Source: Dromiciops gliroides
Taxonomy: Eukaryota; Chordata; Mammalia; Microbiotheria; Microbiotheriidae
Direction of reading: 5' to 3'
DNA: 64,000 nucleotides
Assembly: GCF_019393635.1 (NCBI RefSeq)
Contig: NC_057862.1
Span: forward strand, 678,930,314 to 678,994,313
Shown: in pieces, positions 7,109 through 62,914 of the stretch
Position numbering within the stretch: position 1 is the stretch's first letter
How the letters are laid out: each line of letters starts with the position of its first letter
The notes under the pieces: model-generated
Database searches by the model: none
The model's input: only the letters and a program-made list of their open reading frames with translations
What the model was told of the DNA's origin: nothing
Position numbers and translations under genes: made by a program

Positions 7109-9328
<2,220 letters not shown>

Positions 9329-20880: not shown

Positions 20881-22330
20881 AGCTTTCCCCTCCCTGTCTC
20901 ACAGTAGTAATAGACTCACATAGATTTAACATAAACAAATTAGTGTGGGGAGAGGCAGTAGGGATGAAGAGTGTCAGATTGGCATTGATGGATCAGTTAC
21001 CTATTTATTGCCCATTTGATTCTGGGACAAGTTCCTTGATTTCTCTGAATTTAAGATTTTCATCTATCAAAAAAGGCAGGGTGGATGGAGACTCTCCTAA
21101 GCATCTTGGCTCCTAGATTTCTTTCTTGGTTCTTATTCTTGCCTTTTGTTATCGTATATAAGTTGTTGTTTTTTAAGCATATCTGGGTCAATTTAAGGGA
21201 AGAAAACTTTGATTCTCACCAACATACAAGAGCAGGTAAATCCAGGTATCCCAGGGGGATGAGGGAGGTCCTGGTGGTAGTTGCAACAGAACAGCCCTCT
21301 CCTTAATGAATCTGGCTGGGTAGGTCTACCAGAAAATGAAGGGCTTCAACAGTTAACCTTGGCCCTTTTCCTTCTAGGAGGCTTCATTTCCAAAGGAGCA
21401 GTAAATAGAACTGGCAGGGGTCAAGGAGAGTGAGAATTGGGCTTCCCTTTGGATTTACCTTTCATCTCTACAGTGAGGGGATGACCCTCAAAGAAGACAC
21501 AGTGATAAGGCCATAAAGGGAGAGGCTCTGCAATGGGTCAGCATGGCTGTAACCAGATGCTACTCCTGGGTCCCAAGTGTTTATGACTTCTCAATAGTGT
21601 TTCTGAAATATTGGGGACACGGGGTAAGGGGAATGGCTGAAATCTTGAGCTGCTGGCCTCCAACCCTCAGCCAGTCATCCCTGGTGTCCCTAAGGGGAAT
21701 ATTACTACATTGAACAAGGGACCTGCCTCTGGGCTTGGAGCCTAGAGATGTGATTTCAAGTGTCCTCTCTGGCATTGCCTCAGCTTTTCAGTTCCTAGGT
21801 TTCCTCTTTTTCAAAATGAGAACAATGACACCTGTGTTAGCTCCTTCATGAGACTGTTAGGGGGAACAAATAAAATGAAGGAGGTGAGGTACAATCTTAT
21901 GAAAACAAATGTCAAAAACAATCTTTATATGTAACTGGAAAATAATAAAATACTTTTATGATTAAATAATACAAAAAACCATAACAAAACAAAAAAAGGA
22001 TAGGGGATGCATCTATATGGTCATACCCTCTACATCCTCCCTTAACCACACTGCAGCCTCCCTTAACTCATCCTTATAGACTGCTTCATTTCCTCACTAA
22101 AGGTTAGTGAGGCGGGTAGTGTGGGTGTTACTATGCCCTACTCACAGATGAGGATTTGAAGACTGTGAAGTCAAGTGACTTGCCCAGGGTCTTACAGTTA
22201 ATTTGTATCAAACGTGGGATTTGAACTTAGGCATCCTGATTTCATATCTATCATTTCATCTTTGCTATCATAGCCAAATGTAGACCTTTAGCACTTTGTG
22301 ATATAGTAGGAGTTTTGAGCAGACAATATA
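20881..22330. other. Intergenic sequence
   Basis: Mostly unique. A plus-oriented L1 3' tail lies at about 21895-21965 ('atctttatatgtaactgga' followed by A-rich sequence). A MIR-like remnant lies at 22095-22260. No gene is supported. Confidence 0.5.
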
Positions 22331-22375
22331 ACCTGACACATGAGAGAGACTTTCTTAGAAGATCATAGATTTAGA

Positions 22376-22393
22376 GGTAGTAGTAGTAGTAGT

Positions 22394-22435
<42 letters not shown>

Positions 22436-22461
22436 GCTAGTGGTGGTGGTGGCAGCGGTGG
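22376..22461. repeat. (AGT)n(AGC)n trinucleotide repeat
   Basis: AGT units are followed by about twelve CAG units (22396-22431) and then GGT/GGC units. A GA-rich stretch extends to about 22568. The serine-rich open frame here is a consequence of the repeat, not a gene. Confidence 0.92.
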
Positions 22462-22589
22462 GAGGAGGACTTTTAATGGGGGAAGAAGGAAAGAGGAAGA
22501 GGGAGGGAGAGAGAGAGATAGAAAGGAGGGACAGGGAGAGAGAAGTAGAGAGAAGAGAGGGAGAGAAATTTTTTTATATTAATCTTTTA

Positions 22590-23051
22590 AAAGATTTTCT
22601 TTCTTTCTTTTCTATATTTAGAATTTCCCCCACCTTACATGTAAATACAAATTGTAACATCAATTTTTAAAACTTTATGTTCAAAATTTTTTTCCTTTCT
22701 CCCTATCCCCCCTTAAGAATTCAAGCTATTCAATATAAGTTATACATGTACAGTTGTATAAAACATAGCAGACAAAAAAATTTAGAACGAGGAACTAGCA
22801 ACAACAATAACAAAATATACTTCCATCTATATTCAGATACCATCAGTTCTTTCTCTGTAGATGGATTGCATTTTTCATAAGTCCTTCAGAGTTGTCTTGG
22901 ATCATTGCAATTTCATTGCTGAAAATAACTAACTAATTTGCAGTAGATCATCTTACAATACTACTGTTATATACAGTACATTTCACTTTGAATCAGCTCA
23001 TGTAAGTCTTTCTAGGTTTTTCTGATAGCATCCTGCTCATCTTTTAAAAAA
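22590..23051 (-). mobile_element. 5'-truncated L1 3' end with 18-bp target duplication
   Basis: Diverged marsupial L1 3' UTR and adjoining sequence in minus orientation. It is bounded by a perfect direct repeat TTTTATATTAATCTTTTA at 22572-22589 and 23052-23069, as expected for L1-mediated insertion. Confidence 0.85.
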
Positions 23052-59196: not shown

Positions 59197-59200
59197 GGGA

Positions 59201-59558
59201 TGTAACGATTGGAATGACGCCACCTGCTGGATACTTACTGTAGAAGAGTTCTGCCCATGAAGCAAAGGTCTTTGAGGGCAAGACCAGGCTTCAGGAAGTG
59301 ACGCGGACTGGTGGGAGGAGGAAGGAAGAGACTGGCGCTCAGTCTGGGGCTTTTTCCTGAGGACGCTGGCGGAGAAGGGAGCTAGAAATGTGCTCTCCCT
59401 TTAATAGATAGGAATCTAGGCCTTTCTCTCTCTCTTTACCAAATTCTTATTCTCCTTAATAAACGCTTAAAAGTCTAACTCTTGCTAAAGCTTATAATTT
59501 ATTGGCGACCACTCATTAGATATTTTAGACAGTTTAGCTAGAATTTTAGCCCTTAACA
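59201..59558 (+). repeat. 5' LTR
   Basis: 358 bp, TGTAACG...TTAACA. AATAAA at 59458-59463 is the polyadenylation signal. There is no canonical TATA box; TTTAATAGA near 59400 is the nearest AT-rich candidate. Two TGACGC motifs (59215 and 59299 areas) are CRE-like. A pyrimidine tract lies at 59421-59438. TGGCGACCAC at 59503-59512 in U5 repeats the start of the primer-binding site. Confidence 0.96.
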
Positions 59559-59560
59559 GA

Positions 59561-59578
59561 TGGCTGACCACGAAGAGG
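59561..59578 (+). other. Primer-binding site, tRNA-Arg-like
   Basis: TGGCTGACCACGAAGAGG starts two bases after the LTR. It resembles the complement of the 3' end of tRNA-Arg(TCG), TGGCGACCACGAAGGGAC, with an extra T after TGGC and an extra A later. The tRNA sequence is from memory and should be checked. An ATG at 59560 opens an eight-codon upstream frame across the site. Confidence 0.7.
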
Positions 59579-59610
59579 AAAGCTGAACCTCACTTCTGAT
59601 CTTCCGGTTG

Positions 59611-59616
59611 GGTAAG
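59611..59616 (+). promoter_or_regulatory. Candidate retroelement splice donor
   Basis: G|GTAAGA, a near-consensus donor in the leader 34 bp after the primer-binding site, where many retroviruses carry the major donor. A matching acceptor is at 61529. Confidence 0.5.
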
Positions 59617-59685
59617 AAATTTCCCCTACCCTTTTAACTGCTAAGTACTGGTGTACTGGCTGTGTTTTCCTTTAAATTTTTTCGA

Positions 59686-60564
59686 ATGGACCTTTTAAAC
59701 TCCCTAATTATCCTATTTTTGATTTTAGTCTGTTTAACCGGACAAATGGGAGATAAGATCATGTTAATGCTTTGTTTTTGTGGATTTTCTATTTTTCTTT
59801 TTATTTTTGTTAAAAGAGCCAGCAACTTACTCACACAAGGAAATATCTCTCCCTCTCCCAACCATGCTTTTTCAGAGAAACCTGAAGAGATTCCCACAGC
59901 TTTTCCCAGTTCTAACACTAATTGTTGCTCTAATTTTGCATGCCTGGAGGCAATGACCCACCCTCTAGAAGCTTTTAATCCCCTAGCACCTGGAGGCAAA
60001 GTGGGGGAAGAGGAATCCAGGCCTGAGTTCAAAATCAAGTCTGATTCAAATTGCTCTGGTCCCTCCCCTCCTCTCCAGACCCCACCCTCTACTCCTCCCA
60101 TGGCCAAGCCCATTGCTTCCCCCGCCTGGGAAGTCCAGAGATCTAATGCTCATGCGCAACTTTCTCTAACTACATTTGCAGCTTCAGGCTCAGCCCTTCC
60201 CCAGCCTGGCTGTGCTTCTGAGACAACTTTAGAAAACCCTTTAAATTCCAGATATGCTCGATTTGTTCATAATTTTGCTAACCTGCTTTTGTCTTTAATT
60301 AGTAATCTTATAAAGCGTTTGTATGGTGAAAAGCCCGACAGACAATATAGAGGGGTTAAAGAAGAAAAACTTAAGCTGAATAAGAATGACAATCATCACC
60401 ATAGTTCAAGACTCCGCTTCTTTTGCCATGGAAGGGTATATATTTTACAGAAATGTAGAAGTAAACAGCAAGGTATTGATATGAGTATTGGGGATTTTAG
60501 ATATCGGAATCAAAAGTGTTCTGAATTCACTCAGAGTAATAGTATCAGTTCAGAGGTTACATAG
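59686..60564 (+). CDS. Unrecognised 292-residue protein of the LTR element
   Basis: The start is the first ATG of the long frame (context TCGAATGG, G at +4). The frame is open further upstream to a GTG at 59662, which is not a likely eukaryotic start. Residues 3-18 and 25-42 are two hydrophobic segments, either two membrane helices or a signal-anchor. They are followed by K43 R44. Residues 45-185 are Pro/Ser/Cys-rich, with sequons at N53 and near residue 122 and a proline cluster at 126-141. Residues 193-212 form a hydrophobic or amphipathic helix followed by a strongly basic tail (213-254) with HHH at 237-239. I find no retroviral Gag zinc knuckle, protease or RT motif and no Env signature. 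It could be a pre-gag type leader protein, a highly diverged matrix-like protein, or a captured sequence. It is intact with no frameshift, and an uninterrupted frame of this length is unlikely by chance in sequence of this composition. Confidence 0.6.
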   Translation: MDLLNSLIILFLILVCLTGQMGDKIMLMLCFCGFSIFLFIFVKRASNLLTQGNISPSPNHAFSEKPEEIPTAFPSSNTNCCSNFACLEAMTHPLEAFNPLAPGGKVGEEESRPEFKIKSDSNCSGPSPPLQTPPSTPPMAKPIASPAWEVQRSNAHAQLSLTTFAASGSALPQPGCASETTLENPLNSRYARFVHNFANLLLSLISNLIKRLYGEKPDRQYRGVKEEKLKLNKNDNHHHSSRLRFFCHGRVYILQKCRSKQQGIDMSIGDFRYRNQKCSEFTQSNSISSEVT

Positions 60565-62543
60565 GATTTCTGTGCTATTATATATACATTTTGAAATTAA
60601 TGGTATGGGTTTATTTTCATAGAGATTTTCATGCTTTTGAGATTGTGTCTTATACTTAGTTTCTAAAACAAGGAGAATATTTGTAAAAGCTTTTTATAGT
60701 CATGTGATCAAGTTTATATTTTATAATACTCTTATTGATATTAAGTTCATATTCATTTAGATTTCCTTAGTTTGAATTTCACTGTATTTTATTGTTCCAT
60801 GTGTATTTTCTTCTATTCATTTGTCTATCTAATTTTGAAACATTGCAAGATGGTTTTGATTTTATTATACAATGTTAATTCTAGGAGTATTGTGCTCCCA
60901 TATTCTGAGTTGTTTGTTTTTGTTATTTTTTCTCAACTGATTATTTGATCAAACTCTTTAAAGCATTTCCCTGGCAAATTGTTTGCCATGGCAAGTGTAA
61001 ATTGATTCTAGAAATATTATTTTTGATAAGCATATTCAAAAAAAAAAAAGAGGGGAACATTTGTAAAAGTTTTCTTTTTTCAAAAAAAAAAGTTCTTTGA
61101 GATTCTGTTGTGCTTTAACTTGTATTTAAGTATGTTCTGATTTTTCACAAAAGTAATTGTATACTAAGTAAAAAAAAAGGGTATTATTTGAAATTGTTGC
61201 ATAATTATATATTATATTTTGAGTCAAGATGTATTCACATTTTTTGCAATCATTTATTATCCTCAATTTTAAATCCATATGAGACTTGGATTATGGGAAC
61301 TTATCATTTAAGACATTAATTGCCTTTATTCTGAGTTATCAGATGCCAGTTGGCCAAGATGCCATCCAATCACAAGAGGAATACATGCAAGAGCAGACAC
61401 TGAACTGTCACATGAGGGGAGACATGCATGAAGTCAAGGTATGGCCGAGGGAACGGCTTTTGACAAATGTTGAGGTTGGATTCTCTTGGTTTAATATTTT
61501 ATTCTCTTTTTCCCCACAATATTGTACAGATGGCTGGAAGTATTCATCCCACCCATCTCACTTCTACACCTGGCTTCTATGCTCCCTCCTATATGCCTGA
61601 TGCCATGGACATCTCAATCCCATGCATCTGATTAAGTCTGACTCAGTTTCTTCCAATATGTTCGGTGGCATGAACATATATTCCATCCACCTATTTTAAG
61701 CCTGGCATACTGTATGGGCAGTACATATTGCTCAAGTGTGGGAATGCTCATATCCCATCATTTCTCTGTTCTTTTATGGTAACCCCCATAATTATCTCAG
61801 GTGTCATGATAAATAACAGTGTTGAATTTGGCCTTGACACCTGTTACCAATTATATTAGATTTTCTAATTTCTCATAATGGCATGAGGATAATTAGGCAG
61901 ATGATGCAAAAAGTGATGAAACAAAGATAAAAATTATTTTTAAAAATTAATATTGCAGCAATTGTCTTCTCAATTACCCTCCATGAGGGGGGACTATAGT
62001 AATATTATAATTTTAAAGAATGTTTCAATTTTTGTTTTATTATATGTTTCATGTGTAACAACTAAGATTCTGTATTCCCTTAGACATGTTTTTGAGAACT
62101 TTCATTGTTTGATTTTATTATTGACAAAGCTATTTTAAAGTTGTGTTAAGCTCAATTTTGTAGGAAATTTCCTGGCTGATTACCAGCATCCATACCTCAA
62201 CTCCTGAAAAGACTTCCATTCCACGACTACACCTAGAGGACATCTGAGAAAAGACTTTCAGAGACTTTAAATGAACAGTTTTGATTTGTTTTTGTTGTTT
62301 TTTTTTCTCTTTCTGTTATAATATACACCATCTGTAACATGTATTCTCTGCAGAGGCCCTCCCTTTGCAAGACCAATGTCAAAGCGTCGGTTCATGAGGA
62401 CAAAAAAAAAAAAATCGCCCCTCTGGACAAAACTTTCCTCTCTTCCTTTTCTATATTGTTGTTCACATATTATTAGTTAGCAATAGTTATTATATTGTTT
62501 TTACTGTTCCGTCAAGGAAACATTTTGTTTCTTGAGGAACAAC
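60565..62543 (+). other. AT-rich noncoding internal region of the LTR element
   Basis: About 2 kb with stops in all frames apart from short ones. It has A-runs near 61038-61049, 61082-61091 and 62401-62414. An acceptor-like site (pyrimidine tract then ACAG) ends at 61529, followed at once by ATGGCTGG opening a 33-codon frame (61530-61631). A second polypurine-like AGGGGGGACT lies at 61986-61995. Just before the 3' LTR, one frame ends in a hydrophobic stretch and a hydrophilic tail with its stop inside the LTR, as an Env tail would, but the frame is closed upstream by a TAG. Confidence 0.6.
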
Positions 62544-62551
62544 AGGGGGGA
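62544..62551 (+). other. Polypurine tract
   Basis: AGGGGGGA one base before the 3' LTR (C then TG). This is the expected place and composition for the plus-strand primer. Confidence 0.88.
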
Positions 62552-62552
62552 C

Positions 62553-62910
62553 TGTAACGATTGGAATGACGCCACCTGCTGGATACTTACTGTAGAAGAG
62601 TTCTGCCCATGAAGCAAAGGTCTTTGAGGGCAAGACCAGGCTTCAGGAAGTGACGCGGACTGGTGGGAGGAGGAAGGAAGAGACTGGCGCTCAGTCTGGG
62701 GCTTTTTCCTGAGGACGCTGGCGGAGAAGGGAGCTAGAAATGTGCTCTCCCTTTAATAGATAGGAATCTAGGCCTTTCTCTCTCTCTTTACCAAATTCTT
62801 ATTCTCCTTAATAAACGCTTAAAAGTCTAACTCTTGCTAAAGCTTATAATTTATTGGCGACCACTCATTAGATATTTTAGACAGTTTAGCTAGAATTTTA
62901 GCCCTTAACA
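62553..62910 (+). repeat. 3' LTR
   Basis: 358 bp, identical by direct reading to the 5' LTR. Its AATAAA is at 62810-62815. Confidence 0.96.
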
Positions 62911-62914
62911 GGGA

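What the first reader, a model, noticed from the sequence alone, without database searches (positions are those of the whole stretch)
59197..62914. Complete, apparently recent non-autonomous LTR element with no gag/pol
The sequence shows two LTRs that I read as identical over 358 bp, a 4-bp GGGA target duplication, a primer-binding site and a polypurine tract. The internal region is only 2994 bp and carries no recognisable retroviral enzyme. Identical LTRs mean little time since insertion, so an autonomous partner should exist or have existed recently in the same genome. It is comparable in principle to VL30 or ETn elements, but the internal content is not one I recognise.
Basis: partly seen in the sequence, partly recalled or inferred. 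Interest (0 to 1): 0.88.

Follow-up and report, generated by a model that had tools for sequence, protein, structure and literature searches.

The report
Young retrovirus-like element with orphan gene
A marsupial genome carries many young copies of a short retrovirus-like element that shows none of the usual viral genes but keeps one gene of unknown origin, which may help the element spread.

Summary
The element is real: two identical 358-bp LTRs, GGGA target duplication, PBS, PPT, 2994 bp inside, and no gag, pol or env by Pfam. It is one copy of a young family in a 3.3-Gb genome; 11 of 12 copies compared have identical LTR pairs.

A frame of 292 codons (59686-60561) exceeds every shuffle in three controls and has period-3 signal comparable to EGR4. 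In 8 copies it differs from the window by three indels, all 3 nt; the AT-rich part has 84, of which 74 break frame. It is open in 15 of 18 LTR-chosen copies holding it. No relative was found.

The primer is a tRNA-Arg: PBSs occur in divergent, full-tRNA and mixed forms, and one copy holds 28 nt of tRNA.

Best reading: a class-I-type non-autonomous element moved by a helper, carrying a maintained orphan protein. Selection on the protein is suggested, not proven. No helper was found: 20 of 459 LTR-end + tRNA-type PBS sites were sampled and none showed gag; the gag family sampled has another LTR and PBS.

The parts
59197..59200 (.). target site duplication GGGA, left
59201..59558 (+). 5' LTR, 358 bp, TG...CA
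   Evidence: identical to 3' LTR; LTR hits in the genome
59458..59463 (+). AATAAA poly(A) signal in LTR (second copy 62810-62815)
59503..59512 (+). TGGCGACCAC inside U5, read as relic of an earlier primer-binding site
   Evidence: 10-nt match to the PBS motif; windows scoring as high occur only in the two LTRs and at the PBS; full form in L070
59561..59578 (+). primer-binding site, tRNA-Arg type with two extra bases, 2 nt after the LTR
   Evidence: PBS states among copies
59610..59617 (+). GGGTAAGA, possible splice donor (by eye)
   Evidence: not tested
59686..60564 (+). orphan open frame, 292 codons plus TAG; two N-terminal hydrophobic segments, Pro/Ser-rich acidic middle, basic C-terminal third
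60565..62538 (+). AT-rich region; no coding periodicity in the two stretches tested
62539..62552 (+). polypurine tract region ACAACAGGGGGGAC
   Evidence: same 14 letters in all 12 copies compared; 0 substitutions in last 34 nt
62553..62910 (+). 3' LTR, 358 bp
62855..62864 (+). TGGCGACCAC inside U5 of the 3' LTR
62911..62914 (.). target site duplication GGGA, right

Best explanation
This is one young copy of a multicopy, non-autonomous, class-I-type (gammaretrovirus-like) LTR retroelement. Shown: LTRs, 4-bp duplications, PBS/PPT anatomy, many copies, absence of recognisable gag/pol/env, traces of a tRNA-Arg primer in the PBS, and an open frame that mostly stays in frame between copies. Inferred: the LTR drives a full-length RNA; a helper class I virus or element packages, reverse-transcribes and integrates it in trans; the orphan 292-aa protein, probably membrane-anchored, is translated from that RNA and is kept because it helps the element spread or survive in the host, in the way that the IAP 1delta1 gag-pol fusion protein helps its own non-autonomous element.
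For: Anatomy. No enzyme: (98 pieces, Pfam). Family: 43 LTR matches reported, 3506 first-look candidates of which 40 were scored; 11 further copies with both LTRs, LTR pairs identical in 11 of 12 including the window, TSD matched in 10 of 12. Primer: of 65 PBS sites tallied, 44 have the divergent form, 15 match the tRNA over at least the first 17 nt, 5 are mixed and L015 departs after 14 nt; L074 carries 28 nt of tRNA complement including the T-loop, as expected if reverse transcriptase copies the tRNA into the PBS. Frame: longer than any shuffle in three controls; period-3 power 3.63 against 0.68 +- 0.38, 0 of 500; all three parts of the frame show it (9, 0 and 0 of 1000 shuffles); T sits at codon position 3 in the second and third parts and G at position 1 in the second. 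Indels against the window in 8 copies: 3 in the frame, all 3 nt; 84 in the AT-rich part, 74 not multiples of 3. Open in 15 of 18 LTR-chosen copies with the whole frame. Shared changes have a nonsynonymous/synonymous ratio of 0.64, singletons 1.03.
Against: The selection signal on shared changes is not significant (Fisher p 0.079), only open copies entered that test, and 28 of its 43 had been chosen by their good ORF match. The AT-rich part is prone to indels and events are shared by descent, so the 3-versus-84 contrast is partly composition and ancestry. Substitutions are not rarer in the frame (3.14%) than in the AT-rich part (2.6%). Of 12 frames read in the PBS-chosen sample, 5 are broken. 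L015 lacks leader and nearly all of the frame yet has identical LTRs and a duplication, so an element without the gene could still integrate once (the loss may have happened during that reverse transcription). The PBS paper of 2016 prefers tryptophan for the same motif (PMC4724089, passage). No transcript, protein or helper has been seen.
Confidence: 0.66

Rival explanations
1. The frame is a remnant of a divergent gag: the element is an internally deleted provirus whose truncated gag stays open because the deletion is recent or because the gag product still helps packaging.
For: It sits where gag sits, after the leader and a possible splice donor; it has a Pro-rich middle and a basic C-terminal third, a loose gag-like order.
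Against: No Pfam match at E<=10; no relative at E<=10 among 160-509 aa proteins or 471-1500 aa proteins; the best CX2CX4HX4C window has 2 of 4 ligands, reached by 1762 of 2000 residue shuffles; no PTAP/PSAP, PPxY or YPxL motif; two hydrophobic N-terminal segments, which is not a usual matrix start (recalled).
Confidence: 0.25
2. The frame is a host gene piece captured as cDNA, with the AT-rich part as its 3' untranslated region, as in the crocodilian ERVs that captured KIT-ligand and nectin3.
For: Coding block followed by about 2 kb of AT-rich DNA without periodicity in the stretches tested; ERV capture of host mRNA is documented (PMC4299795, passages read).
Against: No protein matched, although the same database returned EGR4 of two marsupials at 87 and 90%. 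The search needs shared 5-residue words, so a fast-evolving source gene could be missed.
Confidence: 0.2
3. The frame is a passenger: it is open only because the copies are young and descend from a few recent sources; it does nothing now.
For: LTR pairs are identical in 11 of 12 copies; singletons look neutral, ratio 1.03; substitutions are as frequent in the frame as in the AT-rich part; some copies are broken.
Against: The 8 copies differ from the window by about 3% in the frame and 2.6% in the AT-rich part, time enough for 84 indels there but only three 3-nt ones in the frame.
Confidence: 0.2

Closest known systems
VL30 (mouse, class I, non-autonomous, co-packaged with MLV)
   Same: Class I non-autonomous element moved in trans (PMC6466679, passages).
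   Different: The VL30 insertion in that paper is 5.5 kb; this one is 3.7 kb, marsupial, with a tRNA-Arg-type PBS and a mostly conserved open frame.
ETn/MusD (mouse)
   Same: LTR element without gag/pol moved by a coding-competent relative.
   Different: ETn has no coding capacity according to that paper; this has a 292-codon frame. A relative sharing the LTR was not found.
IAP 1delta1 (mouse)
   Same: Non-autonomous element that keeps an open frame whose product acts in cis.
   Different: Its protein is a gag-pol fusion; this one matched nothing in the searches made.
PhER (koala)
   Same: Marsupial LTR element without viral enzymes (PMC5696478, passages).
   Different: PhER is 8 kb with 478-bp terminal repeats, limited env similarity and no protein-coding capacity.
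HERV9 (by primer-binding site only)
   Same: PBS motif tggcgaccacgaagggac, reported in some HERV9 chains and labelled Trp or Arg (PMC4724089, passage); tRNA-Arg by GtRNAdb (PMC11905727, passage).
   Different: Same primer motif only; no LTR or protein comparison made.
MEGrv 1-3 (class I ERVs of dasyurid marsupials)
   Same: Class I ERVs of Australian marsupials; MEGrv 1 and 2 are described with identical LTRs (PMC11334065, section 7).
   Different: 7.8-8.5 kb with gag, pol, env; LTRs 451, 486 and 281 nt, not 358.

Membership tests
Class I (gammaretrovirus-like) LTR element | 4-bp target duplication | tested here: met
   10 of 12 copies; L011 and L013 do not match
Class I (gammaretrovirus-like) LTR element | TG...CA LTRs, PBS about 2 nt downstream, PPT before 3' LTR | tested here: met
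   these features are shared by other retroelements too
Class I (gammaretrovirus-like) LTR element | class I pol phylogeny | not testable with these tools
   no pol found in the element
Non-autonomous LTR retroelement family | multicopy with the same enzyme-less interior | tested here: met
   10 of 11 fetched copies carry the whole interior; L015 does not; 134 ORF copies scored of 9355 candidates
Non-autonomous LTR retroelement family | autonomous partner with shared LTR/PBS | tested here: inconclusive
   none of 20 sampled LTR-end + tRNA-type PBS sites showed gag in 0.7-1.7 kb; pieces upstream of gag frames at three places show no similarity to this element, one of them has a Lys-type PBS; 439 of 459 sites unread or known only by place
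Deleted provirus with decayed gag-pol | recognisable gag, pol or env remnant | tested here: not met
   98 pieces
PhER | 8 kb, 478-bp LTRs | tested here: not met
   3710 bp, 358-bp LTRs against PMC5696478 (passages)
ERV with captured host gene | homology of the frame to a host gene | tested here: inconclusive
   no match at E<=10, but the search needs shared 5-residue words and the host genome was not searched for an intron-containing homologue

The most novel reading that the evidence does not exclude
A mammalian non-autonomous retroelement that has discarded gag, pol and env but keeps a protein of its own, unrelated to known retroviral or host proteins, which selection maintains because it makes the element a better parasite of a helper virus or better protected from host silencing: a retroviral satellite with its own gene. 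More than a hundred copies with the frame free of stops were seen in one genome (133 of 134 scored), and there may be many more.
Probability: 0.35. Interest if true: 0.85.

Novelty: new variant of a known kind. Interest (0 to 1): 0.63.

Why it matters
Non-autonomous ERVs such as ETn have no coding capacity and live on cis signals. A young, abundant family that keeps an orphan protein while lacking every enzyme would be a satellite-like retroelement with its own gene, and offers a live system for asking what a parasite of a retrovirus must encode. The PBS states and the tRNA over-read are a direct genomic record of tRNA-primed reverse transcription. The family is young enough that individuals may differ at many insertion sites (inference), which would make it a marker and a source of new mutations in a marsupial.

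Tried and rejected
Zinc knuckle near the C-terminus: considered, rejected (2 of 4 ligands, reached by 1762 of 2000 shuffles). Koala PhER: rejected on length and LTR. Structured leader RNA: z-score -0.40, not significant (59479-59760). Gag_p30 family as helper by shared LTR: no similarity to this element in four pieces next to gag frames at three places (PBS read in one). Sites with tRNA-type PBS as helper: 20 of 459 sampled; 13 carry this leader and ORF start, 5 (L071, L072, L074, L075, L088) run into other parts of this element, L070 and L081 run into other DNA in which 7 frames gave no retroviral Pfam match. Viral contigs: nothing. Solved structures: nothing convincing, best E 0.062. Rfam: nothing at gathering score in the window. 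The listings of paper searches showed no description of this element that I recognised; none could search by this sequence, and Dfam/Repbase were not available.
Full report
What is there. The window holds a complete LTR element at 59201-62910, flanked by GGGA on both sides, with two identical 358-bp LTRs and 2994 bp between them. It reads on the + strand: a PBS starts 2 nt after the 5' LTR, a polypurine tract abuts the 3' LTR, and AATAAA lies inside each LTR. A blastn of the element against the 64 kb found nothing at E<=1e-3 but itself and its two LTRs. The host is a marsupial by its EGR4 frame (7112-8518, minus strand), whose best database matches are Antechinus flavipes (90%) and Macrotis lagotis (87%).

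It is a family. With the LTR as query the genome search reported 43 matches; it had 3506 first-look candidates and scored 40. Twenty-four of the 43 form 12 pairs, the window's own included, whose LTR starts lie 2.35 to 3.83 kb apart. I fetched the other 11 pairs (L009-L019). Ten carry the whole interior at 95.0 to 99.97% identity, L018 with an internal duplication; L015 lacks the leader and nearly all of the frame. LTR pairs are identical in 11 of 12 elements and differ by 2 substitutions and 1 gap in L018; the 4-bp duplication matches in 10 of 12, not in L011 and L013. These copies were chosen for LTR similarity to the window, so the sample leans to young ones. At the other 16 LTR places, stretches of about 1.1 kb were fetched: 8 hold interior sequence, 1 is rearranged and 7 look like solo LTRs, the upstream side being judged only from where the LTR match begins. 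Zero differences in 358 sites bounds divergence at 0.83% (95%), or under about 1.9 million years at an assumed rate of 2.2e-9 per site per year (the rate is recalled). L009 is 99.97% identical to the window copy in the interior, a near twin.

It has no recognisable viral enzymes. None of 98 six-frame pieces of 20 aa or more matched a retroviral Pfam family at E<=1.

It has a gene. The frame 59638-60561 (first ATG 59686, 292 codons) is open for 308 codons; the longest frame in shuffles was 180 (of 1000), 203 (of 2000, local composition kept) and 233 (of 2000, first 1042 bases only). Its period-3 power is 3.63 against a null of 0.68 +- 0.38 with 0 of 500 shuffles reaching it; the EGR4 frame gives 4.44, and two 871-nt stretches of the AT-rich part give 0.11 and 0.14. 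Each part of the frame shows it: 9, 0 and 0 of 1000 shuffles. Outside the element 9 of 1952 windows of that length score as high, five around EGR4 and four at 21601-21691, which I could not explain. T is commonest at codon position 3 in the second and third parts and at position 2 in the first, hydrophobic part; G is commonest at position 1 in the second part only. That favours the + frame as the coding one.

The frame is mostly kept between copies. It is open in all 11 of the two-LTR copies that contain it, window included. In the LTR-chosen sample of 28 places (window, L009-L019, L050-L065) the whole frame is present in 18 and open in 15; L059, L060 and L063 are broken. In the PBS-chosen sample 7 of 12 frames read from their start are open over what was fetched and 5 are broken; L085 was not read. 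A protein search of the genome scored 134 of 9355 candidates, all at 96% identity or more, 133 without a stop; that list is biased to the best copies. Against the window, 8 copies show 3 indels in the frame, all of 3 nt (0.43 per kb), 84 in the AT-rich part of which 74 break frame (5.45 per kb), and 17 in the leader (16.8 per kb); substitutions are 3.14%, 2.6% and 5.25%, so the frame is not slower in substitutions (L009, L015 and L018 were left out of this count). The AT-rich part is indel-prone and events are shared by descent, so this is strong but not a clean test. Over 43 open copies (36 distinct; 28 of them chosen by ORF match), singletons have a nonsynonymous/synonymous ratio of 1.03 (55 and 15) and shared changes 0.64 (52 and 23; Fisher p 0.079). 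Among the 11 two-LTR copies the pooled ratio is 0.81, and 0.31 to 0.81 for the window against the nine that differ from it. That fits neutral change after insertion and mild purifying selection in the source lineages, but the second part is not significant.

What the protein looks like. Two hydrophobic stretches lie in the first 45 residues or so, then an acidic Pro/Ser-rich part (21 Pro in 140 residues, pI 5.1) and a basic C-terminal part (pI 10.0) (that call numbered from the residue after Met). No Pfam match at E<=10; no relative at E<=10 among 617 candidates of 160-509 aa or 2694 of 471-1500 aa in a database that does hold marsupial proteins. These searches need shared 5-residue words.

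How it is primed. The motif tggcgaccacgaagggac occurs in some HERV9 chains. PMC4724089 prefers to label it tryptophan after the Leipzig database; PMC11905727 says that by GtRNAdb it is tRNA-Arg (passages read). I follow the second; the UCG anticodon is recalled. In 65 PBS sites tallied, 44 (the window among them) have a form with two extra bases; 15 match the tRNA over at least the first 17 nt; 5 are mixed, tRNA-like at the start only; L015 departs after 14 nt. Twenty of the 65 were chosen for the tRNA-like start and 28 came with the ORF search, so these are not frequencies. L074 has 28 nt of tRNA complement running through the T-loop (beyond 18 nt the identity as tRNA-Arg is recalled). That is what reverse transcriptase reading too far into its primer would leave behind. 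Genome-wide, LTR end plus tRNA-like PBS start occurs 459 times with 2 mismatches allowed, 0 in the reversed control. Why the divergent form persists beside the tRNA form is not explained.

An older primer site in the LTR. Each LTR holds TGGCGACCAC, 58 nt upstream of where the PBS starts; in the 64 kb, windows scoring 20 or more against the PBS motif occur only at these two places and at the PBS. L070 has a full PBS motif (17 nt) at that place and a second one 57 nt on. I read this as an LTR that grew at its right end when priming moved to a downstream, duplicated PBS. This rests on one copy, whose upstream part is not our LTR, and the search for more did not complete.

The helper. Gag_p30 matches are abundant in this genome, many in frames without a stop (150 scored of 3388). 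Four pieces beside gag frames at three places (L066-L069) show no similarity to this element; the one PBS read (L068) begins TGGCGCCCGAACG, lysine-type by recall. Among 20 sampled sites with our LTR end and a tRNA-like PBS, 13 carry this leader and ORF start (L078 cut short), 5 run into other parts of this element, and L070 and L081 run into other DNA; none showed gag in the 0.7 to 1.7 kb fetched, and 7 frames of L070 and L081 gave no retroviral Pfam match. So a helper sharing the LTR was not found; the other 439 sites were not sampled this way (one is L015, two are ORF copies listed). A helper with a different LTR, as MLV is for VL30 (PMC6466679, passages), remains possible. Integrase and reverse transcriptase families were not searched in the genome (one search did not complete).

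Placement. It works like VL30 or ETn and meets the tested features of a class-I-type non-autonomous element; class by pol cannot be tested. The open orphan frame sets it apart from ETn, which has no coding capacity, and from koala PhER, which is 8 kb with 478-bp repeats and no coding capacity. The nearest functional parallel in what I read is IAP 1delta1, whose own fusion protein helps it in cis. I therefore call it a new variant of a known kind.

Noticed in passing
59217-59230 and 62569-62582, minus strand: Each LTR holds CCAGCAGGTGGCGT, 13 of 14 positions of a recalled CTCF consensus; the window has 5 such sites, these two included, with 0.84 expected. The family may spread CTCF sites.
   Followed up: partly
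59503-59512, 62855-62864; L070:80-153: Relic primer-binding site inside U5; L070 has two tRNA-Arg-type sites 57 nt apart, suggesting the LTR was extended past an older PBS.
   Followed up: partly
L074:143-170: 28 nt of tRNA complement at the PBS, read as reverse transcriptase over-reading the tRNA primer.
   Followed up: partly
L071, L072: Aberrant products: L071 is LTR + 22 bp + LTR; L072 has the 3' part inverted directly after the PBS.
   Followed up: no
G000:C6:191712858 and 191716232; C6:96699651 and 96703039: Gag_p30 matches sit in tandem 3.37-3.39 kb apart, close for a gag-pol-env provirus between them: perhaps a gag-only non-autonomous family. L067, from between the first two, is 98% identical over 2 kb to L068, whose PBS is Lys-type.
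   Followed up: partly
L040-L045: Six copies with identical ORF letters on four contigs; L044 and L045 are identical over the 2800 bp compared, a recent burst.
   Followed up: no
L082, L085: More diverged copies (ORF 91-92% and 85.5% identity), possible older members for a deeper selection test.
   Followed up: no
7112-8518, minus strand: EGR4 gene, used as control.
   Followed up: yes
21601-22570: High period-3 power in four windows starting 21601-21691; tandem repeats reported in 21400-22700 start only at 22394, so it is not fully explained.
   Followed up: no
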